From NCBI RefSeq assembly GCF_000003815.2, contig NC_049980.1, positions 23,530,773 to 23,594,772 on the forward strand: 64,000 nucleotides of DNA, given 5' to 3'. Of this stretch, positions 45,024 to 64,000 are shown piece by piece; the stretch's first letter is position 1; every line of letters starts with the position of its first letter. This stretch comes from Branchiostoma floridae. Taxonomy: Eukaryota; Chordata; Leptocardii; Amphioxiformes; Branchiostomatidae. Under the pieces are notes generated by a model. The model saw only the letters and a list, made by a program, of their open reading frames with translations. It was not told where the DNA came from and ran no database searches. Made by a program: the position numbers and the translations under genes.

Positions 45024-47895
45024 TCAGAGGTTGAATGGTGCCAGTTTAAGTCTGTTGCTGTCGTCAGGGTGCCTTTGTGCTATACCACATCTCAGCAGCA
45101 TCTCAATGTACGGTGGCCAGTATCTGGGCTCCATGGGTATGTATGGGTCGTGCGGCGAGTCCACTGACTTGTTTATAAGTGTCTCTATCATTGTGTTCAG
45201 AGGCGTCCACTGGGGGTCATCAACATCAAGAGTCTTGTCCACCGGGCCGGACCCGTGACGCCGCCGTCTCTTCCCCTTAGCTGGCTGTGGGGGAGGGAAG
45301 TGTGTGTCCAGGAATTCAGCCAATCTCTGCACTAGGTCGGTGTGGAACTGTTCTGCCTGCTTTAGTTTCCTTCTAAATGTTTTGACCTGGGAATGGAAGA
45401 TGATAAACAGAACAATTAAGCAAACAAACTTGTAGCACAAATATTCTGCAAAACAAATTTTTGACCAAATACACAATAACACACAATTATACTACAGTAC
45501 ATGCACATATTAAATGTACACAGTAAGGCCATGATGATTTGATAATATAGATGGCATCCGTGCTCACATCAGTTTTTGGCTGTTTCCAAAAATAAAAAAA
45601 GTTTTCAACCAAACTGTAAATCGTACAACTACAAAGCAACTGCAAAATGAGCAAAGATGTGCCAATAGAATGAAAAAAATATGGAAAACGTCTACTAATG
45701 TCATAGAATAGCAAGGTCAATTGACTCAATTCCAAGGTCATAGGAGAAGATCTGAAAGAACAAAAATGAAGGATCTATTGTTGGTATTCCCTATAATCAA
45801 TCATTTGTTCAACTTTCCTGACCACTTGGATTCCATAATGAAGGCAACCTTTTGGCCAAACTTTTTTTTATGTACACACTCGCATCAGTTTTTGGGTTCG
45901 CAGAGGATGTCATCTATATGGCCTAAACCTATGTTGCAAGGAGTCAGGCCTATGGTGTGCTGGCAAGACAGTTATTCAGTAGTTCCTCACCCTACTGTCC
46001 ACGGATGTTTCATGTGCCTCTGGTACTTCTGCCAGGCGAGCCTCCAGCATCCTCCCTAACTCCTGTCGCTGATGTAACACTTGTTCTTCTAACTCCAGGG
46101 ACGCTGACAGCTCCTTCTGCTGTGCCTGCATGGCTGGGAGGAGTTCAGATAGCTGCTCTATGGACTCCTTCAGATGATTCACCAGAACTGCTTCCACCAC
46201 CTATACAGAAAATATATAAGAAATTCATATTCATACTTATCCTTATTACTAGTATTACTTGGATAATCAGATAGATGTATAGAAAAGCCAGGAATTCATA
46301 ATCATATTCTCTGAAATTAAGAGATGGGGAGGGGGAATTCTTCAATCTTCACCCATTTAATGATTTAGTCTATTTTGATTTCATTTTTGGTCCTTGCTCT
46401 CACTTCTATTTGTTTTCCTTCTGGAAATGCACCAGTCTAATATAAAGACATGACGGCTCATGTTTCTAAAAGGTTTTTCTCTTCTCTATTCATCAACAGT
46501 TAGCTATTGATACAAATGTCCAGCAACACCTAATTTTGGAACAAATCAACAGTGAATACTAGACTAGGGGAGGGGACCATTACATCATATTCATAACGGT
46601 ACAAAAACGTTTTTTTTGTTTTCTTTTCTGGGACCGGCCCAAAAAAATGGACTTACATGTATTAGTGGTACAGATTTTGGACCCATTAGATCAAGAACAG
46701 ATTATGTTAGCAGGCCAGGTGTCCACATGTTATGGAGTTTACTGGTTCAAGAAAATAACAAGAGCAGAGTTCATAGTCATTTCTACAAAGTCTCTACAGT
46801 CCAACGTTAAAGCATCATTTAAATAAATATTGGATTTCAAAATGTCAATACTTCAACATACAGATCTCTTAGTAGTGAAATGGTAGTTTTTACTAATTTT
46901 AGTATCGTCCACTTACAAGTTTTCACAGACTGTACAGATGCAGGTCTGGACCTAGACCTGGTCCTTCGGACCTGAAACATACCTGTACCTGAATTTTCTG
47001 TACCCACCCCTAATCACTGACAGTAATACTAATAGCGAATATGGCAAGGCATTCTAACTTCCAATACAGACCTTTTTGTGAGTAGACATGAGCTGTGGCT
47101 GCTGCGATTCCAACACTTCCACCTGCGCCTGCAGCTGCAGCTGTTTGGCTCTGCTCACGGCCAGCAGGGGGGAGGGGCGGTCTGTGGGACTGGCATCTCC
47201 TGTCTCTTCCTGTAGTCTGGAGCAAAAGGATATGCATCATGATTCATGAATTCATGAACATGTTACTAGTAGTAGTACCGTTCACACCGGCATGTGGCTG
47301 TCTATCTGATGGGGCTTCTGAATGGCACATAAATCTATACACTGATATGATTTGCTGAGCTCAAAAAGGTGTGTGGCAAATATAGTGGTCCTCCTAGTGG
47401 TTAGTTGATTCCCTCTAAATAGCTTGTGGTCCTACGTTCAAATTTTTATTTCAAATCAAAATACAATTCCACTCCTTTACAAATAAAGATAAACATGTAC
47501 TGCAAAATTTACATGACGAACTTCTCTTCTGTAAATTATTTGTGTTGTTGTTGTTGTCATTGTTGGCTGTAACGCTTCTCTGTGTTACTGTATGCAAGAA
47601 AATTATTACACACAATTTTGTGTATTGTAAGACAGAATATGATTGGGTTTAAATCTACAGAAAGCCCTTGAATATATCATCCCTATTCTATCTTCGCTGT
47701 TACACGCACGTATGGTAATCAGATAACTTTTTATGCCTGTGCCCACCTTTGCTGAAGCACGTTGACGTCTCGCCACACCTCCACACACTCCTGCTTCATC
47801 TCACACTTCGCCGAGGCGACCGGCGTCCAGTCCGGGCTGTTTCCCATCGATGTAGAAAAGGAAGACGCACGGTCGTAATCCTCCGGTGTCCCCAT
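45024..47895 (-). CDS. CENPK: Centromere protein K
   Basis: Subunit of the CENP-H/I/K part of the constitutive centromere-associated network, linking CENP-A chromatin to the kinetochore. Minus-strand exons: 47747-47895, 47072-47216, 45991-46200, 45024-45386; phases agree (288 residues; human 269). The middle is coiled-coil-like, rich in Gln, Glu and Leu (LKESIEQLSELLPAMQAQQK). The C-terminus is diagnostic: EFLDTHFPPP, then DPYIPMEPRYWPPYIEMLLR and GIAQRHPDDSNRL, matching the family's DPY...WPPY.E.LLR.GIA.RHP pattern. An in-frame ATG 51 nt further upstream leaves the start uncertain. A short extra exon in the 850 bp intron cannot be excluded. Confidence 0.9.
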
Positions 47896-51230: not shown

Positions 51231-51693
51231 TCAAATTAGGGTCTGGACCTTGATGTCACAGGCCACCGCCCCTCCGTCGGGCGTCTCTCCCCTGCAGGTG
51301 TAGGTGCCGTCCCGTTCAGGAGACATGCGGTCGATGTGCAGCTCGTGTAGGAAGCCGTCCGAATTTGTGGTGATGCCTGGGTCGCCTTTGATGACGGACC
51401 CGTTGTAAAGCCACTCAACCTGGTCAACTACAGATAATCAAGCAATGACACCAATTAGATACTACATGTATCAACATTGTGATTTCACAGCTTGGTAAGA
51501 GCTGACAACATGTAACAATGATAAACATTGAACAGAATTTTCCCTTAAGCTGCTGTCGAGGACCTACCTTCTCCTCTGACCTCTAGAATGACAGGTTGAC
51601 CGGGAGCAACCACGGTGGAGGAGGCAGACATCAGGCTGCCCTGTGGGGCGGTGGCGTCAATCAGGTACCTCTGGCCCGCACCCCTGACAACGG
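51231..51693 (-). other. C-terminal Ig I-set domain of the CARD receptor (last two exons)
   Basis: Exons 51568-51693 and 51231-51427 encode VVAPGQPVILEV ... VEWLYNGSVIKGD ... DGTYTCRGETPDGG, ending in KVQTLI and a stop. Trp (C strand) and DGTYTC (F strand) are present, but the B-strand Cys is replaced by hydrophobic residues, as in many intracellular muscle-type Ig domains. By topology this domain is cytoplasmic. Confidence 0.85.
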
Positions 51694-54600
51694 CTAGAAA
51701 AATCAGAGTTCATGTCAATATTCACTGAACATTATTCAGAGAGATTAAGTAATTGGCAAGCAGCAGTCCTTTCAGCGGTGTTAAGACTTAAGAAAAGGTT
51801 GTAGACATTAATGACAGTGATGATACCAGTACTTCATTCTATAGGTCACATTTGGAGCAACCGGAGGGAGTGATGATGCTTCCAATTTCTCTCTCTCTCT
51901 CTCTCTCTGTTTCTCTCTCTCTCTCTCTCTCTCCCTCCCCCCTCTCTCTCTGTCTCTGTGTGTGTCTGTGTCTCTGTGTGTGTGTGTGTATATGTGCTAG
52001 ATAGCAATTAGAACATTACGTTAGATTTTTTGTTAGTAGAACAAGGAGGTTGCTGGCAAAACATCAAGGAGGTTATGATTGTAGGTTTGTCTCTAGTATC
52101 TTTTTCCTTGGGTAAATTGACTGTTAAGATGTTTGACATGTCAACAAACCTCCATTTAGATGATGTCCCTTGAAGGAACCGTCTGCTTGGAGTCCATGTC
52201 CGGCTGAACTCCCGAGCCCCAGGTCAGCTCCAAATGCTCCAGCAGATTTCATCCCTGATGCGGAGGTGCTCTGGGTTGTCAGGTGAGCCCCACCGGTGCC
52301 CATACCTCCTTTGGCGGCAGCCAGGCCAGCAGCGGCGGTGCCTAGTCCAACCCCTGCCGCACCCAGTCCAGCCCCTGCCGCACCCAGTCCGAACCCGGCA
52401 CTGGACTGGTTCAGGCTCACACCCTCCTTCCTACTCATCTTCATCACAGTCTCATCTTCCATAATCAACTCTTTTCTGGTCATATCAATTCCTTCTCCTG
52501 AAATGCATCAATATAAGCTCCATCTGAGTGACAGTTGCTGTGCAGTGTGTAAAACTGGCAGTTAGTCTGTTATTCATGCCTAACCAAACACGGACGTACT
52601 TCCAATTGTCTTGGAAATAGTCGAGTGGTTACTACATGAATTAAAAAGTCAAATATAGGGATGAACATGGATAATATCAAACATATTTTACGCCGTCCTA
52701 TCCCATATATATATAGACTGTGCCAAATAATTAATTTTTACTCCATTTTGTATCTTTACTGTGCACATCTTTACCTTGCAGAAGGTCAGCAAGATGGGCC
52801 TGTTGTCCATTAGCCCTCAGTCCAGAACAGAAGATACTGAAGTCTTCATCGCTACGAGACTGCATCAGGTGGAGGATGCGGTTGTTCTGCTCCTCGGTAG
52901 AGCTTCCCTGCATGCAGTACTCCGCCATGTCGTTACTGTAGATCTGAAGTACATGTAAAACGCATGTCAGACGAAAAAGAAACAGGTTGAATTTTAATTA
53001 TTGTTAAAAGACATTTGTTGTTCTACAGACATAGCAGCAAAATGATAAGAAACATTGATCCTTTCTTAGGAAGCTGTAGGATTCTTGAGTAACGGTAAAA
53101 CCTAGGTATGTGATGAAGTAGTCATTTCCGTTTCCATATACTACGTCGTGTTGTATATAAAAGACATGGCCCAGTCCCCGTGTAGGTTGCACTACTATGC
53201 ATGTTGTTCAGTTACGTGGCTTAGTCATATTCGTTTTAGGAAAATGTATGATTTTGATGTCGTAGGGTTTTCAAGCAGGCTGCAACAGAACCAACCACCA
53301 ACGAGGATCTAAGACAGCCTAACAAGACGGCTGAATTTTGTGCGCCATGAGCAAGACTATTAAAGAATCCCCCGGTTTACTACGATGAATGTGGCCAGTC
53401 CCTAATTAAATGATTAAATCATTACCTGGTTTTGTGTCAGGTAGTTCAGAGTTGACTCCGGGTCCATCTTGTTTGCCAGCAGCCCCTTGTGAGCCTCCAG
53501 CCTTTTACGATTGTCCATGGATAACCCTATTGACATAATTGGTAGTGAGTCGTCACGGAAGCTGTTAGCAACTCTGAAATAAGGTTTCTTTAGTAACTTA
53601 TATTTCTATCGTAGAAGGAAAGCCTGTTTCATTGGCACCATTCTGTACACAAAGCTGAATAAATGTGATAACGATAACCTGAGATGAAGGAGTGTATGCT
53701 ACAACACCAGCTGGACCATAACTCGTACAAGGACAATTTCCACATTAGTTGTTATACTATCGGTCTGCAAATGGTTATGTGGTGGCCAACAGTGGTATAT
53801 AGCAGGTACAAAGACTTTATTATATATCTTTATGGGGCTAGGCGGCTTGTATCTCATTATGGCCGAAGGATTCGCATTCGCATTTCCCATTGTCTTGATG
53901 TTTGGAAGTAACCAATGTTAAACAGATTACTAAAACATGTAAGAAGAACACCAGACAAATTTGAAACAGAATAATAGTTCAGGAACCTTGGCCCTCCAGC
54001 GTGTCTGCCAGCCAGTTCAGCTTCTCGTCCTTCCTGAGACCCCCACAGAAGCTGTCAAAGGATTTGTCCCCTCCCAGGACCATGCTGTCCAGGAGCTTCT
54101 TACTCTTGTCCTGGCGCACGGGGTGGCTGAAATAGATAAAACAGAACATGTAATCAAACAAATCTTCCACGACATGGCGTTTCACACGCTGTGTGTATGA
54201 CAGATTCCTTTGTTAAAATATACCTTATATGTTCTAATAGGGCATTCATCACCTGTCATTTCTCTTGCATGATGTCAAACTCGATGGGATCAACAGCAAA
54301 CTAGTCACGATCTTTTATACATGAAGCTATGTTATTAAAACCTTACGCCAGCCCTTCACTATTGATGTTGCAATAAACCATAGAATTGGAGCTTTACTCC
54401 GCACACCAAGGTACATTAAAATCATACTTCATGACAATACATTCAACTATAGCCGTTTTGATATTTACAAAAAATGAAGCGCTCAGCTTTACATCTGCTA
54501 CATTCTTCAAGCTGAATTTGTTTTAACTTAAGTAATATCAGTGAGGAATTACCTCGCTATGGCATGCACCATGTTGGCGTTAATGACCTTTTCATTCGCC

Positions 54601-57600
54601 ATGCGCGCCGTGACCTTGCCAGGCACCTTCATGTTATCCACGATGGTGGTCCGGTAGGTCCGCAGCATCTCCTGGTGAACCCGGCTCATTGGTGTTAAAT
54701 CTGTGGTGGGGATTTGTTCATAAATCAAAATTGTTGCCTTTGTTGATGACTTCAATATAACAGATGGTATGTATGGGCTATAGGTAGATGACAATGTTTT
54801 GTTTGTTTATTTTTGTTTAACCTGGGTTACGTGTCACCTGGCTGGCGATTTTCAAAGATCCCTGGGGGTAATGTAGCTAGTGATCTTCAATGCAAATGTA
54901 TATTGTTGGTTTTACGTTTCCAGACGTGATTGGAAGTGAAATTGTTATAAGACAAGTTGCAAGCGTAAAGCAACCACTTACTTGAGAGCACTTGTCCTTT
55001 TCCTAAGGCCTTTTCCTTTTTCTTTCCGGCACACCATCCTTTGCAGCAGCAGCAAAATAGCAGCTGAAAAAATGTAGACAAATGTAAAGTTCCAACCCAC
55101 TTTGAACATGCCGATGACATGATAACAAGAAATTAACGAGAACCCGTTTCAATGTTAGGTTGCAGATGTGAAGAAGGTATAATGCCCTTCATGCTTCACA
55201 ACTCAGTCACGTAATCTTCGTAATATTGCTTGATTACAAGTACGCATTTTGCGATTCGGCGAAACGTATGAGAAACGCATTTGAATCAACAGGTGGCTTT
55301 CTGTAACATTTTGTATTGTGAAACCCAGACATAGGTATATCAATTTTAATATCTTCAGCAGCTGTGTTGTGGCATTTGTATGTCATTGATAAGAAATATT
55401 CTTTTTTTATCTTACTCAAAGATGTCGTTAGGATTTTTTCATTGTATCATTATAATCAATACTGTACATAATGATGTAGCAACTCAAAGCTTATATCAAT
55501 GGCACCGCTCAAAAAAGTATTCAACATATGTAACATAAAGCAGGAGGATCTGATACCAAGGTAGACAAACGAAAAAGTGGTTACACAAACTAGATTGTTT
55601 GTTACAAATAAATATACAATTGACAAATGATAATCATGATGAATATACTATCTAAACCATACCAGTAGCAGGAGAGGGAGCAGCAGCAGTAGTAGTGGCA
55701 GTAACCACGCGATCAGCGGGACCCCACCACCACCAGCTACGCGAGTACTATCAGTAGGTCCGACTACTGGTGCTATCCGACCGTTGACAAGTTTGTCGCT
55801 GTATGGTCCATATATGCCNNNNNNNNNNNNNNNNNNNNNNNNNNNNNNNNNNNNNNNNNNNNNNNNNNNNNNNNNNNNNNNNNNNNNNNNNNNNNNNNNN
55901 NNNNNNNNNNNNNNNNNNNNGCGGCACCCATTAACCCATAAAAACGTTTATTTATTTTACACGGCGACTTTAAGGCAAATTTCAGTATAGATATATAAAC
56001 CTCAGCCTACTTCAACAATGCTGAATGTCCTGACGCAATTGTGTATATTTTCAATTAACATAAAAAAATCAGCATTTTACAATGTGCCATTAATGCCAGC
56101 GTTAGAGATATGTGGTGACACGACGTTACTACAATTTACATATATCGCAATTTGCATACTTCATGGAAGTACGAAAACTCATCATCATCGAAAAGTTACT
56201 AATTCTGTCTTGCCCTGTATGTGGAGGTATCCGGGTTTGAATTGGGAACGGTTGCTTGCAGTGGAGTTTTCCCCACATCCATGTACTGGACGTTGTCGGG
56301 GTTGTCTGTCGGGTAATACTGTATCTGGTAGCCGTCGAGCTCTGCTTTCGTCTGCGGCTCTGACCAGGACAGCGTTGGCGAGTTGTCCCCCTTTTCAACA
56401 AGTTTGAGGTCAGCCACTTTGGCTGGTGCTGTGTATGACAACATACATTGTATTTCTTGTATTTATGTCTCGAATCACATTTGAATTATCCAGTAACATC
56501 TATATCGTAGTACAGGTTTGTAATGTATACTATAGGCTTGTAATGTCCATGAACTTTGACACATGAAGGTCTGTTCTCACATGTCGATGTTGAAAAAATA
56601 AATTCTGATTTGTATGCAGCACCTATTATTTATATTATATCATAGGTTTGTGTTTGATGGCTATCAACTGACGTTAGAAGTGAAAAAAAAACACGTTTTA
56701 GAAAAAGGCGGAACGCGTGCCGATAGAGCCAATACTATTACAGACATTATGGCTACCTCTCGAATACGAGCTCCATATTAGCTATATCGACCATGTTAGC
56801 TCTTTTCTGATGGCACATACCTCCGACCCTGACTTCGGAAAAGGACGGCGTCAAGCCGTATTGGTTCTCCAAAATGCTTTGGTACGAGCCGCTATCGACA
56901 CCGGGCTGGGCGTTTTTAACAGTTAGCCTTGATGTCGCGGGAGAGCTGTTGTCGACGATATACTTGGTGCCGTCGGGCACTACGTCCTATGAAGGATATG
57001 ATTGGTCGAAATCAATGTCACATAGATAGCTTTCTTTTGACTGACACATCACAGCAGCCTAACTTAGGCTTAGGTCACATTTCCAAACCGGGGCCCGGCC
57101 GGGGTGTTTTCAGAAACGAAAAATCAAAATTAATGTAACGTTATACTTCGAAATACACAGATGTCATGCCCAAGGATCTTATTTTGGAATTTTGTGTATT
57201 TTGATGCTTTATATCATTCTTTTCGCTGCCGAAAGCTGCCCGTCCGGGCCCCAGTTTGGAAATGTGACCTAAGCAAGTGCATTCTACTTGCGCCAGGTCA
57301 ACTGGGATAATCGCTGCCTTTCTTTCCAGCCGATCGGAGACTGAGGACAAAGAAAGCCGCATTTTCATTAAGTAAGGCCATGTTGATTTGATTATATGGA
57401 TTGCAACATCTGGAAACCCCAGAACTGGTGCGAACGTGCGAATAAAAAAAAGTTCACGGGTTCTTTTTCGTGCAAAAGTTTGATGCTTGAAGCTAAACTC
57501 ATGAAGACCCCTCATATACAGGGCAATCGCTTTTACGGTACCCAACGGGTCGCACAAAACTTATGAAAGGGTAAAGGTAGTCCTATAGGTCGTACAGCGG

Positions 57601-59992
57601 ACATAAATAACAATGATGAGACGTAGACAAATGGACCTATAACTTTGAGTCAATTCAAATCGAGTTAGTGTCACATACTACTTGAAAACAATGAGGTATA
57701 GATTCCACATTCTGTCACCCCCTTTGCCAAATACCTGCCGTCATTTGTGACGTTTTGAACAGTTTTTGAAAGAAAGGACATACCGCTCCGTTGTAGTACC
57801 ATGTGGGAGTAACCGGGTTCCTGCCGTCATCTTGCCACGTCACCTCCAAGTTGATGTCTTCTCCAGGCGCCAGGTCTAGGTTCTGTGTTTCCAACTTCTT
57901 GATATATTGTGGAACGTCTGTCGTGAAAGGAATATACCAAATAAGCAAAACGTCATTACATACATATTTGAAAGTTTGAATGTAAACTTCTCCGTTTGAC
58001 TAAACTGGGCTGATATATATAAATTGTATATTGCTACAAAGGTTTGACGTTAGAACAAGTTTACTGGTCGTTGATCGTGATCTTTACCATCCAGTTAATA
58101 GTATTAGACGAATGGTTTATAAATAAAATAACGGCGGTAATTAGCATTTGTATTCAGCTACCTGTTTCTTTTTCAATGTCTTTGAAGGTAGGAACATACT
58201 GCACATGTACTACAGCTACAGTAATACGGCTGATTGCTCATCATGTGACAAGGTGACGTTTTAATATACACTATAAGATCACAATTTCTTCTGGCACTGG
58301 AGTGGTCACTTTAATCACCTCACTGTACGTACCTTCTATGATGAGCTGTGCTGTTTTTACGTCAGTTCCCTGTGAGTTGGTGGCTGTGACTTCATAGAAT
58401 CCCTGGTCGGGGAGAGCCACGTTGGTCAGCGTCATGGCCCGGTTCCACTGTTCGTACTTTGCGCTCGGCGGAAACTCCATCGGGTTGCCGCCGATTGCAT
58501 CCACTCTGCGCCAGCCAAGAGTCGGAGTAGGACTGGAGAAAGTAGTGAGTTAGTCAATCCTCAGTTTGGGCACATTTGTTCTGCTTTGATATCCGGTAAT
58601 CTATTGTGTGTCTTTGTCTTTTGTAGTCTTATCTTTTTGTTGTCAGTCCCAGCTACATATGTCATATCGTGCTACAATCAAAGAAAGAAAATGAAGTGGA
58701 ATGTGAAAGTAGGAATGGGGAAAGATAAGGAAAGGGACGATTATAAATCTGCACAAAGAAAATACAAAATGCCGGACACCTGAAAGATATGAGTGCTATC
58801 AACGTAGACTCTACGTACAATTGCAACTTTTCGTCTGGCAGTGCACGACTGTACGTCTATTTATGACAAGTTGATGAGAAACAGAAACAAGAGGTTGTAT
58901 TTACTTTCCGTATGCGAAGAATTCCATCAGAACATTGTCTCCTCTTTTCTTGTACTGGACGGTCTCGAACAGCACAAGTTGTGGAGGCGACTGGGGAACT
59001 GGCAAAGTAAACATTCATAAGTACATGGTTAGTAAAGAAATCATCTATATCATCAATTGCCTCTTTTCAGTAAATGCTAAAGTGGAGTATGACACGTTTA
59101 TGTTATCAATCCTAGTTGCGTATTTCGGTTTGCCCCTTTCCCGGCCCTATCATTAGGTCACTCCGCAATGTTGGGTCCATGTTTATGCGTGGGCCATTTT
59201 CAAACTAGGGCCCGGCTTTCTGCGGAAGGGAAAATAAAGTGTACATAAAGGAATATATACTAATTATACTCATGATTATCTTTTGATGTTTTTGTACGTT
59301 TTTGTGGTATTTTGTGTGATGCTTTTTGTTACCGCAAACTGCCTGGTCGGGCGCAGTTTTGGAGATGTGAGCCTGGCATTGCCATGGTACCTACCGGGAG
59401 TGGCACTGTTCACTGTAAGCTCCGTATGGGGGCTGAATTCGTTGAAACCCGCCGTCGATGGGTCCGTTGCCCCACCCGCGTTTAGGTTGATCTTCACTCC
59501 ACATTGATACAGTCCGTTGTCATTCGGGTCGACATTGGCGAAGTAATAATCACCGTTCTTCTGTGACGCGTACCTCCGTACGGTGGGAGAAATGAAACTG
59601 GTCTGGTCGGCCTCAATCCAGTGGTATACAAGACCTTGGAAGTAACGTCGGAAGATTGCATTGTATTGTATTCTCAAAGAAATCACTTCTAATCTAAACG
59701 GTTGTTATTGGGTCTGATTTCTTTTCTGTATTCAGTGGTATACATTTTGGGACCTTGGGTGGTGTTAGTAGAAAGACAGTTTTTTTAGGTTGGTGCGAGT
59801 ACAGTACAAAGCTGCGAAATATTTTGCTGGCTAGATTAAATTGATATATAGAATAGATAGATCACATCATCTGCTGTCTGTAATTTATGTACTCACCAGG
59901 AAATGCATTTGGAGGCATACACGGCAAAAGTGTACCGTTTCCGGAAGAAGTTGTAACGCCGGTTCGTGGACCTATGTCGAAGTCGTCAACAT
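51231..59992 (-). CDS. L1-CAM-like Ig/FN3 receptor with two cytoplasmic CARD domains and a C-terminal Ig domain
   Basis: Minus-strand exons in coding order: 59897-59992, 59395-59634, 58905-58998, 58333-58532, 57784-57917, 56821-56986, 56214-56428 (end uncertain), 55673 into the gap at 55819, 54982-55063, 54553-54700, 53987-54126, 53426-53571, 52775-52943, 52150-52497, 51568-51693, 51231-51427. Roughly 880 residues are visible; phases agree from the first exon to the FN3 exon and again from the membrane exon to the stop. The ectodomain has three Ig domains, resembling L1/neurofascin Ig2-Ig4 (GDYYFANVDPNDNGLYQCG; NPTPTLGWRR; DSGSYQSILENQYG), and one FN3. A transmembrane helix, a Cys cluster and a basic stop follow, then CARD, CARD, a Gly/Ala-rich linker and an Ig I-set domain. 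No ankyrin-binding FIGQY tail is seen. The signal peptide and any earlier Ig domain lie upstream, unseen. Inferred role: an adhesion or recognition receptor signalling through CARD assembly. Confidence 0.85.
51880..51993. repeat. Compound (CT)n-(GT)n microsatellite
   Basis: CT dinucleotides from about 51886 pass into GT dinucleotides up to about 51990. It lies in an intron of the CARD-receptor gene between the exons 51568-51693 and 52150-52497. Confidence 0.9.
52150..52497 (-). other. Gly/Ala-rich linker exon of the CARD receptor
   Basis: A 348-nt exon with phase 1 at both ends. A charged start (MTRKELIMEDETVMKMSRKE) is followed by about 40 residues of repeats such as GLGAAGAGLGAAGVGLG, encoded by tandem DNA repeats of about 24 bp near 52330-52395, and a second Gly/Ser stretch. 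Probably flexible. Length variation between alleles is likely. Confidence 0.8.
52775..53571 (-). other. Second CARD domain of the receptor (two exons)
   Basis: Exons 53426-53571 and 52775-52943. Helices 1-2 read MDNRKRLEAHKGLLANKMDP then LNYLTQNQ; the second half has RILHLMQSRSDEDFSIFCSG and HLADLLQG. This is the canonical CARD pattern (initial Arg/His-rich helix, ILxLM ... F..FC..L ... HLA.LL). The 53571 boundary requires the second AG of TTATTTCAGAG; the first AG would break the frame. Confidence 0.85.
53987..54700 (-). other. First CARD domain of the receptor (two exons)
   Basis: Exons 54553-54700 and 53987-54126. The first half reads MSRVHQEMLRTYRTTIVDNM; the second half has KKLLDSMVLGGDKSFDSFCG and LNWLADTLEG. 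It follows the membrane exon by one intron with matching phase 1, so it is covalently downstream of the transmembrane helix. Its internal intron is phase 2, against phase 0 in the second CARD, so the two are not a recent exon-pair duplication. Confidence 0.87.
54982..55818 (-). other. Transmembrane and juxtamembrane exons of the CARD receptor
   Basis: The exon ending at 55673 starts within the assembly gap, finishes the FN3 domain (GIYGPYSDKLVNG) and runs through a Gly-rich stalk into LIAWLLPLLLLLLPLLL. Exon 54982-55063 adds LLFCCCCKGWCAGKKKEKAL: the helix end, four consecutive Cys (likely palmitoylated) and a basic stop-transfer. This fixes type I topology with the CARDs inside. Confidence 0.85.
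55819..55920. other. Assembly gap inside the CARD receptor
   Basis: About 100 N. It hides the 5' end of the membrane exon and probably a short stretch or exon encoding the rest of the FN3 domain. Confidence 1.
57069..57273. mobile_element. MITE in a CARD-receptor intron (copy 1)
   Basis: CTTAGGTCACATTTCCAAAC at the left is exactly mirrored by GTTTGGAAATGTGACCTAAG at the right, with further pairing (GGGGCCCGG). 205 bp, non-coding, in the intron between exons 57784-57917 and 56821-56986. Confidence 0.75.
59194..59372. mobile_element. MITE in a CARD-receptor intron (copy 2, diverged)
   Basis: CATTTTCAAACTAGGGCCCG at the left and CAGTTTTGGAGATGTGAG at the right form an imperfect inverted repeat and resemble the ends of the element at 57069. 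It ends about 22 bp before the 3' border of exon 59395-59634. Confidence 0.5.
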
Positions 59993-61566: not shown

Positions 61567-64000
61567 TCACTGTGGAGAACCTCTTAATTGGAATTCCACA
61601 CGAATCCAGTGATCTTTGATTCTACCAATGGGATGTTGTGGACTCTTCAGTATGAAGCGTAGAAGTGCATCAGTGCGTCTATTAAAGTGTATCGCACACA
61701 TGACAGGGTCTGATCTCATTAGGTTCCATTTGTCTTGTTGTGGTAATGCTTTAGCTTCTTCATAGGTCAGGTCAGGATTCAGGGTCATGAACAATTCTGG
61801 CCAGTTTAAATCATTAGCAGACACAGTGACAAACCATGTTGGTGGTCCAATAGTGTTTATTTTTGCTAGCAAGTTTAGCAGTTGGTCCTTGAAGTAAGCT
61901 GCTGTTCCACGTATATTCTTCATAAAAGTGTATGATGTGCTTTCAACATGTTGATCAATTTCATGATGCAGATCGCCTGCTGTTAGTGGCTGTGCTATGG
62001 ATTGTGATCTAACATTACTCTGCTTTTGCATTCTACATACAATGGATATCTGACTGTACAATTTCTTGATTTCATACGAGTTCAAGGCAAAGAAGAGCCA
62101 TGGGATGTTTTTTCTCCAGCAATCATTGATATTGAGCAAACGTGATTGGAAGTACTGTAAGTCTGTTAGTTGTACATCACGCGTCTGTTTGAAGCCATTT
62201 TTACCATATGGGTATAACTGTGGAAAACAGTGTTCCTCAAGATCAGTCTCTTTAAATATGCTTTGTGGTGGTGATGTTTCACGTGGTAGTGATATCACTG
62301 GGACATTGTCTGTTACATTCTGCAACAGAGATTGTAACTGGACATTTGGATTAATGTAGTTACAGGGAAAAGCTGAGAGTTCTTGGACAGTAGAAGGTGC
62401 ACTTGAGAAGTCTGGTTCATTGGCGTCTGTGATCATTGGATTGAATTCACTTGACTTTTTTACCCAGTTTTCAAAGGTAGCTATGTTCACATGTGAATAT
62501 AGATGATTATGCGTTACCAGCCATGTAAGAGCTTCATGCATTTTGGAAAATCGTACAATGTGTTGTGGGTCTGTTCTTTGTGTTTTACTTTCATTTGTCT
62601 GACAAGGGTGTACTATTACTAGCCCAGCTGTATCTTGGCTATGTGGTAACAGTTGGCAAGTAGTTTCAATGTTGGTAGGGAAACTTATGGCTTGACCTTG
62701 TTCACCAAATTGTCCACCTGGTAATACAATTAACTTGATGAAGGTGTATTTCAAACTGACAAGTCTTGTTTCCATTCTACTGAGTTGTTTCAGGCATGAT
62801 GGAATGTCACCTGGATCCATATTGTTAGTCCAAGCATTGGGTATGGGTTTGTCTTTTTCAAGACAAATCAAACACTTTGAACAGAGATGATGTTGACCAG
62901 AAATATCATTGACTATTTTGTCTATGACAGCATTGTTGCAGTTTCGCACTTGGTCATGAAATAACAATTGTCTACATATGCTACAGTAGTACTTTGGCTG
63001 CTGTTTTATATAGCAATGAAATGCAGGAAAGTCTGATTTGTATTGTTCACTGGTATAGTCTATGCTATGTTCTCTAACATATTTTGTAGCCAATGTTTTT
63101 CTCACTCTATCACAGTTTTTCCTCTGTCGTTGCGTTTTTTCTTGTGAAGATTCTTGTTCAGCTCTTTTTGCTTTGCTAGCTTTGCGTGATGTCCTTTGTT
63201 TTGCAAGTCTTTCGGCTTTTTGCTCAGGGGTCTCATTTGCTTGTTTTGCTTTGTATGATGCTCTTCGTTTTGCAAGTCTATCGTCTTTTTGCTCAGGGGT
63301 CTCATTTGCTCGTTTTGCTCTTTCCTGTGCAAGTCTATCTGCTTTTTGCTCAGTTGTCTCATCTGCCTGTTTTGCTTTGTATGAAGCTCTTCGTTTTGCA
63401 AGTCTTTCATCTTTTTGCTCACGGGTCTCATTTGCTTGTTTTGCTTTGTATGATGTTCTTCGTTTTGCAAGTCTTTCATCTTTTTCCTCAGGGGTCTCAT
63501 TTGCTCGTTTTGCTTTATATGATGCTCTTTGCTGTGCTGCTTTTTGCTCACAGGTCTCATTTGCTTTCTTTGCTTTGTATGATGTTCTTTGTTCTGCAAG
63601 ACTCTCTGTCTTCTGTTGATAGGTTTGTTTTTCTTGTTTGTCCTTGCATATTGCGCTTTGGATTGCAAGACCTTGCACTTTTTTATCATTTAAATTTGAT
63701 GCTGCATTTGGTGACATTACTAATTGATTCAAGAGGCCTTCATTCCTGTTCTCTGGCATAGCACTTGGATGTTTGCTTGTGGTGCATGGCACAATGTTTT
63801 TCCCAGTACTTTGGTTACAATGTGGTGCAAATGGAAATGCTGTGTTTGGTTGTTGTAGGTTCTCTTTCGTAGATACAAACTCTGGTTTAACCAAGGTGTA
63901 TGTGTGTTGTTGTTGAACTTGAAAGCAGTTTTCTGACTCAATCATAGAAGAAACATTGCTAGTCAGATTGATAATGTGTATACCACTCAGGAATCCCAGC
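61567..64000 (-). mobile_element. Helitron replication protein, N-terminal part, broken at the HUH motif
   Basis: A minus-strand frame is open from the right window edge; the first in-window ATG is at 63943-63945 and gives 792 residues. The N-terminal third has about ten copies of a ~20-residue basic repeat (ETPEQKDERLAKRRASYKAK type), common in animal Helitron proteins. A Cys-rich zinc-binding stretch follows (YYCSICRQLL ... HHLCSKCLIC), then the Helitron-like N-terminal domain (FPQLYPYGKNGF ... RLLNINDCW ... GPPTWFVTVSANDLNWPEL). The frame stops right after FQLRGSP, where active Helitrons continue into the two-His HUH motif of the rolling-circle endonuclease; no helicase follows to the left. 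The copy is therefore truncated and inactive by itself. Confidence 0.85.

What the first reader, a model, noticed from the sequence alone, without database searches (positions are those of the whole stretch)
51231..59992. Adhesion-type Ig/FN3 receptor fused to tandem CARDs
One minus-strand gene joins an L1-CAM-like ectodomain (three Ig, one FN3), a transmembrane helix and two clear CARD domains. Seen: every junction from the membrane exon through both CARDs to the stop is phase-matched, so this is not two adjacent genes. Known: L1-family proteins end in an ankyrin-binding tail, and CARDs nucleate NF-kB or caspase complexes. I know of no described protein with this order. Inference: a cell-surface sensor that signals by CARD oligomerisation, in a lineage known for expanded death-fold repertoires.
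Basis: partly seen in the sequence, partly recalled or inferred. Interest (0 to 1): 0.9.

Follow-up and report, generated by a model that had tools for sequence, protein, structure and literature searches.

The report
Contactin-like surface receptors with intracellular CARDs
In this lancelet-like genome, a tandem family of genes appears to join a nerve-adhesion-type outer part to inner CARD signalling domains and a further Ig domain, which could plug surface contact straight into immune or cell-death signalling; this is inferred from gene structure only.

Summary
The fusion looks real and is not a one-off. The window gene (minus strand, ends 51231) reads Ig2-Ig3-Ig4-FN3-TM-Cys cluster-CARD-CARD-Gly/Ala linker-Ig; Ig1 exons lie about 2 kb past the window end. 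Splice phases fit. The most doubtful join (CARD1 to CARD2) uses a weak donor (53987) and a weak-looking acceptor (53526), but the same intron, in the same phase, is present in the 7 other copies with both CARDs that I could read. The host genome has 15 loci where CARD exons are followed by the same C-terminal Ig (10 read as sequence, 5 known by search positions only). At 13 of them contactin-like Ig exons lie upstream in the same orientation. Seven form a 150-kb array on contig C9. Gene-prediction error, the standing criticism of lancelet hybrids, is therefore unlikely. Best reading: a lineage-expanded family of membrane receptors signalling by CARD assembly. Ligand, expression and signalling are untested. 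My library searches found no described Ig-CARD receptor. Rated a new variant of a known kind.

The parts
59897..59992 (-). Ig2, first exon (phase 1 in, phase 1 out)
   Evidence: Pfam Ig
59395..59634 (-). Ig2, second exon
58905..58998 (-). Ig3, first exon (phase 2 out)
58333..58532 (-). Ig3, second exon; canonical Cys pair absent
57784..57917 (-). Ig4, first exon (phase 0 out)
56821..56986 (-). Ig4, second exon
56214..56428 (-). FN3, first exon; GC donor at the position where paralogue p785 also leaves its FN3 exon in phase 0
55819..55920 (.). assembly gap (102 N) at the second FN3 exon
55663..55818 (-). end of FN3 (GIYGPYSD), Gly-rich stalk, poly-Leu transmembrane helix; phase-0 donor GTATGG. 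Its 5' end is the gap edge, not a splice site
54982..55063 (-). juxtamembrane exon LLFCCCCKGWCAGKKKEKALGKGQVLS: Cys cluster then basic residues; phase 0 in, 1 out
54553..54700 (-). CARD1, first exon; contains conserved Met (ATG 54689-54687)
53987..54126 (-). CARD1, second exon; weak donor GTTCCT, in-frame TGA just inside the intron
53426..53526 (-). CARD2, first exon (acceptor homologous to that of the paralogues; the stronger acceptor at 53573 is out of phase)
52775..52943 (-). CARD2, second exon
52150..52497 (-). Gly/Ala-rich linker exon
51568..51693 (-). C-terminal Ig (predicted cytoplasmic), first exon
51231..51427 (-). C-terminal Ig, second exon, stop TGA 51233-51231

Best explanation
The gene encodes a type I membrane receptor of a lineage-expanded family. 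Outside: four contactin-type Ig domains and one FN3. Then a poly-Leu membrane helix, a Cys cluster on the inner side (perhaps lipid-modified: inference), two CARDs, a flexible linker and a further Ig domain. Shown: gene structure, order, phases, copies, constraint on the coding sequence in recent pairs. Inferred: binding of the ectodomain to a partner cell, a microbe or a copy of itself clusters the receptor; clustered CARDs nucleate a CARD filament or recruit a CARD-bearing caspase or BCL10-like adaptor, giving NF-kB or cell-death output; the inner Ig stabilises oligomers or docks an adaptor, by analogy with the Ig domains beside MALT1's CARD-like death domain.
For: Domains. Membrane helix. 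An exon that starts in phase 0, ends in phase 1 and opens with at least 3 Cys in 14 residues (that rule was part of the search) lies between TM and the next CARD exon in 9 of 10 loci; control: 0 of 10 on the reverse strand, 10 of 200 shuffled intervals. The tenth locus (c9_8) has CCCCCCCCSCC plus RRKRVKK in the TM exon itself. CARD1a/1b phase 2 in 8 of 8, CARD1b/CARD2a phase 1 in 8 of 8, CARD2a/2b phase 0 in 9 of 9 loci aligned. WLADTLEG.G at the CARD1-CARD2 join is invariant in 8 of 8. CARD1s resemble CARD1s (mean 47%) and CARD2s CARD2s (52%) more than the two in one gene resemble each other (27%), 8 loci, so the unit was probably duplicated whole. 15 loci: 7 on C2, 8 on C9. No internal stop in the exons compared in phase. 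dN/dS in pairs with dS under 0.4: CARDs 0.31 (cp1-cp2) and 0.28 (p690-c9_2); p690-c9_2 Ig3 0.31, Ig4 0.17. CARD profile nearest solved CARDs: RAIDD (CARD1); CED-3, NOD1, caspase-9, CARD11, BCL10 (CARD2). MALT1 precedent: PMC3179463 (passages).
Against: No transcript, protein, ligand or signalling evidence. The window copy has the weakest CARD1 donor (-1.9 in my approximate matrix against 0.0 to 4.4 in the 7 others), so some or all of its transcripts may stop after CARD1 (EGQGS). CARD matches to solved structures are weak (best 7.8e-7 with the profile; single sequence 0.033), and the c9_8 CARD is below Pfam's cut-off (18.2 against 23.9 bits). Constraint is weaker in parts: Ig4 0.61-0.62 and FN3 0.65-0.76 in pairs with p740, last Ig exon 0.38-0.51 in close pairs and 0.78 for window-p785. 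No TRAF6, ITIM or YxxPhi motif in the tail. No downstream partner was searched for. Layout is not fixed: cp1 and cp2 have no detected ectodomain, cp3 and c9_8 one CARD.
Confidence: 0.6

Rival explanations
1. Two genes that always travel together: a contactin-like surface protein ending soon after the membrane segment (in the window copy even GPI-like, LLLLVWFR then stop), and a separate cytosolic CARD-CARD-Ig gene with its own start.
For: If the TM donor is not used, the window copy stops after 4 more residues, like a GPI signal; c9_2 stops after 2, p740 after 6, cp3 after 7. Met at the CARD1 start in 9 of 9 CARD1 sequences. cp1 and cp2 lack a detected ectodomain.
Against: Stops within 7 codons in 4 of 9 comparable loci is near what random sequence gives (about 3 of 9; my estimate), the other five run 11 to at least 25 residues, and the read-through residues are not alike. 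A Cys-cluster exon in the right phase on both sides joins TM to the CARD exons in 9 of 10, against 0 of 10 on the reverse strand. cp1 and cp2 keep TM and Cys exon before the CARDs.
Confidence: 0.08
2. Alternative products: full receptor plus a shorter cytosolic CARD-CARD-Ig protein from an internal promoter at CARD1, or a CARD1-only receptor where the weak 53987 donor of the window copy fails.
For: Conserved Met at CARD1; weak donor with immediate in-frame stop.
Against: The Met may only be a relic of a captured CARD gene. No promoter evidence either way; the promoter scan run uses a bacterial consensus and says nothing here.
Confidence: 0.3
3. The family serves mainly adhesion or nerve-type recognition, and the CARDs are a structural or localisation module, not immune or death signalling.
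For: Ectodomain nearest contactins, which act in neural adhesion (function recalled).
Against: CARDs under constraint in recent pairs (0.28-0.31) and varying in number between copies fit a signalling module but do not prove it.
Confidence: 0.2

Closest known systems
Contactins (and, further off, L1/neurofascin)
   Same: Ig1-Ig4 ectodomain: paralogue p785 matches contactin-2 over Ig1-4 at 2.4e-64
   Different: Contactins have 6 Ig, 4 FN3 and a GPI anchor; L1 proteins an ankyrin-binding tail (recalled). Here 4 Ig, 1 FN3 (two first-exon hits in p740), a TM helix and CARDs; no FIG.Y motif in the tail
MALT1
   Same: A CARD-like death domain beside intracellular Ig domains, whose tandem Ig domains oligomerise (PMC3179463, passages)
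   Different: No paracaspase match, membrane-spanning, CARDs instead of one death domain; the inner Ig profile is nearest MyBP-C and titin I-sets, and MALT1 is not among the 60 shown of 388 hits
UNC5 receptors (recalled)
   Same: Ig ectodomain, one TM, death-fold inside
   Different: UNC5 has TSP1, ZU5, UPA and a death domain, not FN3 and CARDs
Amphioxus hybrids (TNFR-caspase, LRR-caspase, TIR-NACHT and others), PMC2575513
   Same: Receptor part fused straight to a death or inflammation module (section 8 read; passages)
   Different: Section 8 names no Ig-CARD or FN3-CARD protein; figures and supplements not seen
Sea cucumber AjNLRC4 (Ig-NACHT membrane receptor), PMC8699970
   Same: Extracellular Ig joined to an NLR-type inner domain (passages)
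   Different: NACHT, no CARD, different ectodomain

Membership tests
CARD (PF00619) | Pfam CARD above gathering score | tested here: met
   Window CARD1 40.2 bits, CARD2 27.8 bits, cut-off 23.9. The c9_8 CARD falls short, 18.2
Contactin family | Contactin-type Ig1-Ig4 | tested here: met
   Ig1 of the window copy is outside the window
Contactin family | 6 Ig, 4 FN3, GPI anchor (recalled) | tested here: not met
   4 Ig and 1 FN3 found, TM plus about 434 residues inside. The window's gap could hide a further FN3; paralogues without a gap there have 1, p740 2
L1-CAM family | 6 Ig, 4-5 FN3, ankyrin-binding FIGQY tail (recalled) | tested here: not met
   FIG.Y absent from the tail; CARDs instead
MALT1 | death domain, Ig, paracaspase | tested here: not met
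   no caspase-like or Death match in the pieces searched
UNC5 | Ig, TSP1, ZU5, death domain | tested here: not met
   no TSP1, ZU5 or Death match in the pieces searched
Amphioxus receptor/death-fold hybrids | receptor ectodomain and death-fold module in one transcript | tested here: inconclusive
   gene order at 13 loci, phases at the loci read as sequence; no transcript evidence available

The most novel reading that the evidence does not exclude
A previously undescribed class of surface recognition receptors, at least 15 loci in one chordate, that turns contact by a contactin-type ectodomain directly into CARD-filament signalling, with a membrane-anchored Cys cluster and a MALT1-like inner Ig as built-in scaffold. 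CARD number (one, two, possibly five), FN3 number and ectodomain vary between tandem copies, as expected of a pathogen- or self-recognition repertoire.
Probability: 0.4. Interest if true: 0.85.

Novelty: new variant of a known kind. Interest (0 to 1): 0.7.

Why it matters
If true, a membrane receptor with built-in CARDs skips the usual adaptors between a surface event and a CARD signalosome, and does so with an adhesion-type ectodomain rather than LRR, TNFR or TIR parts. The tandem arrays give a natural series (one CARD, two CARDs, possibly five; with and without ectodomain) for testing what CARD number does. It also speaks, for this one case, to the criticism that novel lancelet domain architectures are gene-prediction errors (PMC4967905, outline, abstract and passages), because intron phases are shared over many copies.

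Tried and rejected
Rejected: two adjacent genes (phase, Cys exon, recurrence); GPI-anchored contactin ending at 55648 (read-through residues not shared, although 3 other copies also stop within 7 codons); strong acceptor 53573 as the CARD2 start (wrong phase, not the homologous site); MALT1 kinship of the inner Ig; gap hiding a gene boundary (paralogues without a gap there have the same order). Missing inner-Ig disulfide as proof of cytosolic location: the B-strand Cys is absent in 10 of 10 inner Ig domains, but outer Ig3 lacks both Cys in 6 of 8 and the window's Ig4 lacks them too, so the argument is weak. Led nowhere: bacterial-type promoter scan. Other lancelets or tunicates could not be searched here. 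My splice scores come from approximate matrices typed from recall. The spliced aligner forces spurious exons in the linker, N-terminal and gap regions (for the window copy at 63819-60416 and 56200-55798), which I did not use. In one search frames were chosen by fewest stops and some rows were wrong (window FN3a rows, c9_8 inner Ig and Ig2, c9_9 Ig3); identities were redone in phase and the key dN/dS rows. Window-versus-others dS is mostly above 1 or not computable, so I lean on close pairs.
Full report
WHAT WAS CHECKED. The window is G000:C2:23530773-23594772, in a 513-Mb assembly of 431 contigs.

GENE MODEL. Reading the minus strand from 59992 down, exons with AG/GT (one GC) borders give Ig2, Ig3, Ig4, FN3, then a 102-N gap (55819-55920), the end of an FN3 (GIYGPYSD) with a Gly-rich stalk and a poly-Leu helix, a juxtamembrane exon, CARD1, CARD2, a Gly/Ala-rich exon and a last Ig, with the stop at 51231. 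Pfam supports Ig (3.2e-19), fn3 (8e-7), CARD1 (3.5e-10), CARD2 (2.5e-6) and the last Ig (I-set 1.6e-6). From the FN3 end on there is one hydrophobic segment; about 434 residues follow it.

THE WEAK POINT. CARD1 to CARD2 looks wrong at first sight. The donor is poor (53987, GTTCCT, followed at once by an in-frame stop) and the best-looking acceptor (53573) is out of phase. Only 53526 fits. This is where a misjoined pair of genes would show.

PARALOGUES. Searching the whole genome with the ectodomain gave 22 hits and with the two CARDs 29 hits, the window's own exons included. Fetched stretches hold nine further copies: cp1, cp2, cp3 (C2:23.604-23.629 Mb, minus), p690, p740, p785 (C2:23.691-23.798 Mb, plus), c9_2 (C9:2.63 Mb, plus), c9_9 and c9_8 (C9:9.09-9.11 and 8.955-8.969 Mb, minus). 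In each the modules found lie in the same order and orientation, apart from a few weak stray hits (E 0.01 or worse, or Ig and CARD queries touching a sister domain). In all 8 loci with both CARDs the CARD1-CARD2 intron is phase 1 at the same place; the window's 53987/53526 pair is the homologous site. CARD1a/1b is phase 2 in 8 of 8, CARD2a/2b phase 0 in 9 of 9. Between the TM exon and the next CARD exon, 9 of 10 loci have an exon that starts in phase 0, ends in phase 1 and opens with a cluster of Cys (nine in a row in cp3); the tenth has the Cys cluster in its TM exon. The Cys rule (3 or more in 14 residues) was part of the search; the same search finds such an exon in 0 of 10 reverse strands and in 10 of 200 shuffled intervals.

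THE GPI QUESTION. If the TM donor is ignored the window copy stops after 4 residues, which looks like a GPI signal. c9_2 stops after 2, p740 after 6, cp3 after 7; cp2, c9_9, p690 and p785 after 11 to 22, cp1 not within 25 (c9_8 is not comparable, its donor lies beyond the Cys cluster). The read-through residues are not alike beyond the first two, so I take this as intron sequence, but it is a weaker argument than I first thought.

HOW BIG THE FAMILY IS. The inner Ig (window copy) gave 15 hits: the window copy twice, the nine other copies, C9:9062835 and three on C18. With the diverged c9_8 copy as query, inner Ig (21 hits), CARD (21 hits) and ectodomain (51 hits, only 85 of 494 candidates scored) alternate along C9: ectodomain 8.966, CARD 8.958, Ig 8.955; 8.988, 8.979, 8.977; 9.006-9.009, 8.999, 8.996; 9.027-9.030, 9.018, 9.014; 9.049-9.051, 9.041, 9.037; 9.076, 9.066, 9.063; 9.102, 9.096-9.091, 9.090 Mb, all minus: seven genes 18-27 kb apart. 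With C9:2.63 and seven on C2 the total is 15 loci, 13 with a detected ectodomain (cp1 and cp2 start at the TM). Counts are lower bounds by the tool's own statement. The C18 hits and other distant hits of these queries are taken as other Ig proteins, and CARD hits elsewhere (C15, C13, C6, C11, C233 and so on) as other CARD genes; they were not counted and not examined.

VARIATION. CARD number varies: one in c9_8 and cp3 (cp3 has a Gly/Ala-rich exon where CARD1 should be), two in 8 loci, and in c9_9 three further CARD-like stretches lie between TM and CARD1 (8904-8626, 8248-7982 and a split one near 11482-10782 of the joined C9_9085000 stretch); whether they belong to its transcript is unknown. 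p740 has two FN3 first-exon hits and a second CARD2-like pair. p785 begins with a signal-peptide-like MATVGQLFVLLTICYLANG (judged by eye) and four Ig. The window's Ig1 is beyond the window, across a Helitron-like transposon frame at 61570-63999 and an N run.

WHAT IT RESEMBLES. The ectodomain is contactin-type (contactin-2 2.4e-64 against neurofascin 1.1e-29 for p785). The CARD profile touches RAIDD (7.8e-7), CED-3 (3.8e-6), NOD1, caspase-9, CARD11 and BCL10 (46 hits at E 1 or better). The inner Ig is a general I-set (MyBP-C, titin; 388 hits, 60 shown).

CONSTRAINT. dN/dS for cp1-cp2: CARDs 0.31, last Ig exon 0.51. For p690-c9_2: CARDs 0.28, last Ig exon 0.50, Ig3 0.31, Ig4 0.17, FN3 0.43. For p690-p740: CARDs 0.36, Ig3 0.29, last Ig 0.39, but Ig4 0.62 and FN3 0.65; p740-c9_2 Ig4 0.61, FN3 0.76. 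Window against others: CARDs 0.17-0.38 where computable (6 of 7) with dS above 1; last Ig 0.78 against p785. All below 1, no sign of positive selection at this coarse scale, weaker constraint on FN3 and Ig4 in p740. No internal stop in exons compared in phase.

MECHANISM. Shown: structure and recurrence. Inferred: surface binding clusters the receptor, CARDs assemble or recruit a CARD partner, the Cys cluster keeps the tail at the membrane, the inner Ig aids oligomerisation by analogy with MALT1 (PMC3179463). I give the signalling-receptor reading 0.6; the one-gene architecture itself about 0.9 for the family and about 0.8 for the window copy, because of its weak donor.

LITERATURE. Nine searches of the held library. 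Hyphenated Ig-CARD names: 0 papers. Contactin with CARD domains and amphioxus: 0 papers. 'CARD and Ig' type phrases: 10 papers, of which two bear on this by their listing, MALT1 and AjNLRC4. PMC2575513 section 8 names amphioxus hybrids without this one. PMC12373286 (passages) reports CARD with AIG1 in lancelets; PMC4284660 (passages) reports high domain recombination; PMC4967905 (outline, abstract, passages) ascribes much of that to prediction errors; PMC5787515 (passages) had nothing on it in the passages shown. Subscription papers, supplements and database gene models were not searchable, so absence from print is not established; predicted proteins of this kind may well sit unremarked in databases.

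Noticed in passing
61570-63999 (-): Open frame of 810 aa with Helitron_like_N (4.7e-22), DUF6570 and STPR repeats: a Helitron-type transposon between Ig1 and Ig2 of the gene.
   Followed up: partly
45027-46200 (-): Exons of a CENP-K gene (1.4e-33 for the last; 0.0023, below cut-off, for the one before) downstream of the receptor gene.
   Followed up: partly
G000:C9:9090089-9106016 (-), copy c9_9: Three extra CARD-like stretches between the TM exon and CARD1, one followed by a Pro/Ser-rich repeat frame: possibly a five-CARD receptor or inserted CARD genes.
   Followed up: partly
G000:C2:23618381-23628839 (-), copy cp3: CARD1 not found; in its place an exon of nine Cys followed by Gly/Ala-rich sequence.
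   Followed up: partly
249-459 and 1329-1684: Two arrays of the same 52-53 base tandem unit in opposite orientation (compared by eye).
   Followed up: no
G000 whole genome: 149 CARD matches at E 0.001 or better (150 of 187 candidates scored, lower bound), in line with a large death-fold repertoire.
   Followed up: no
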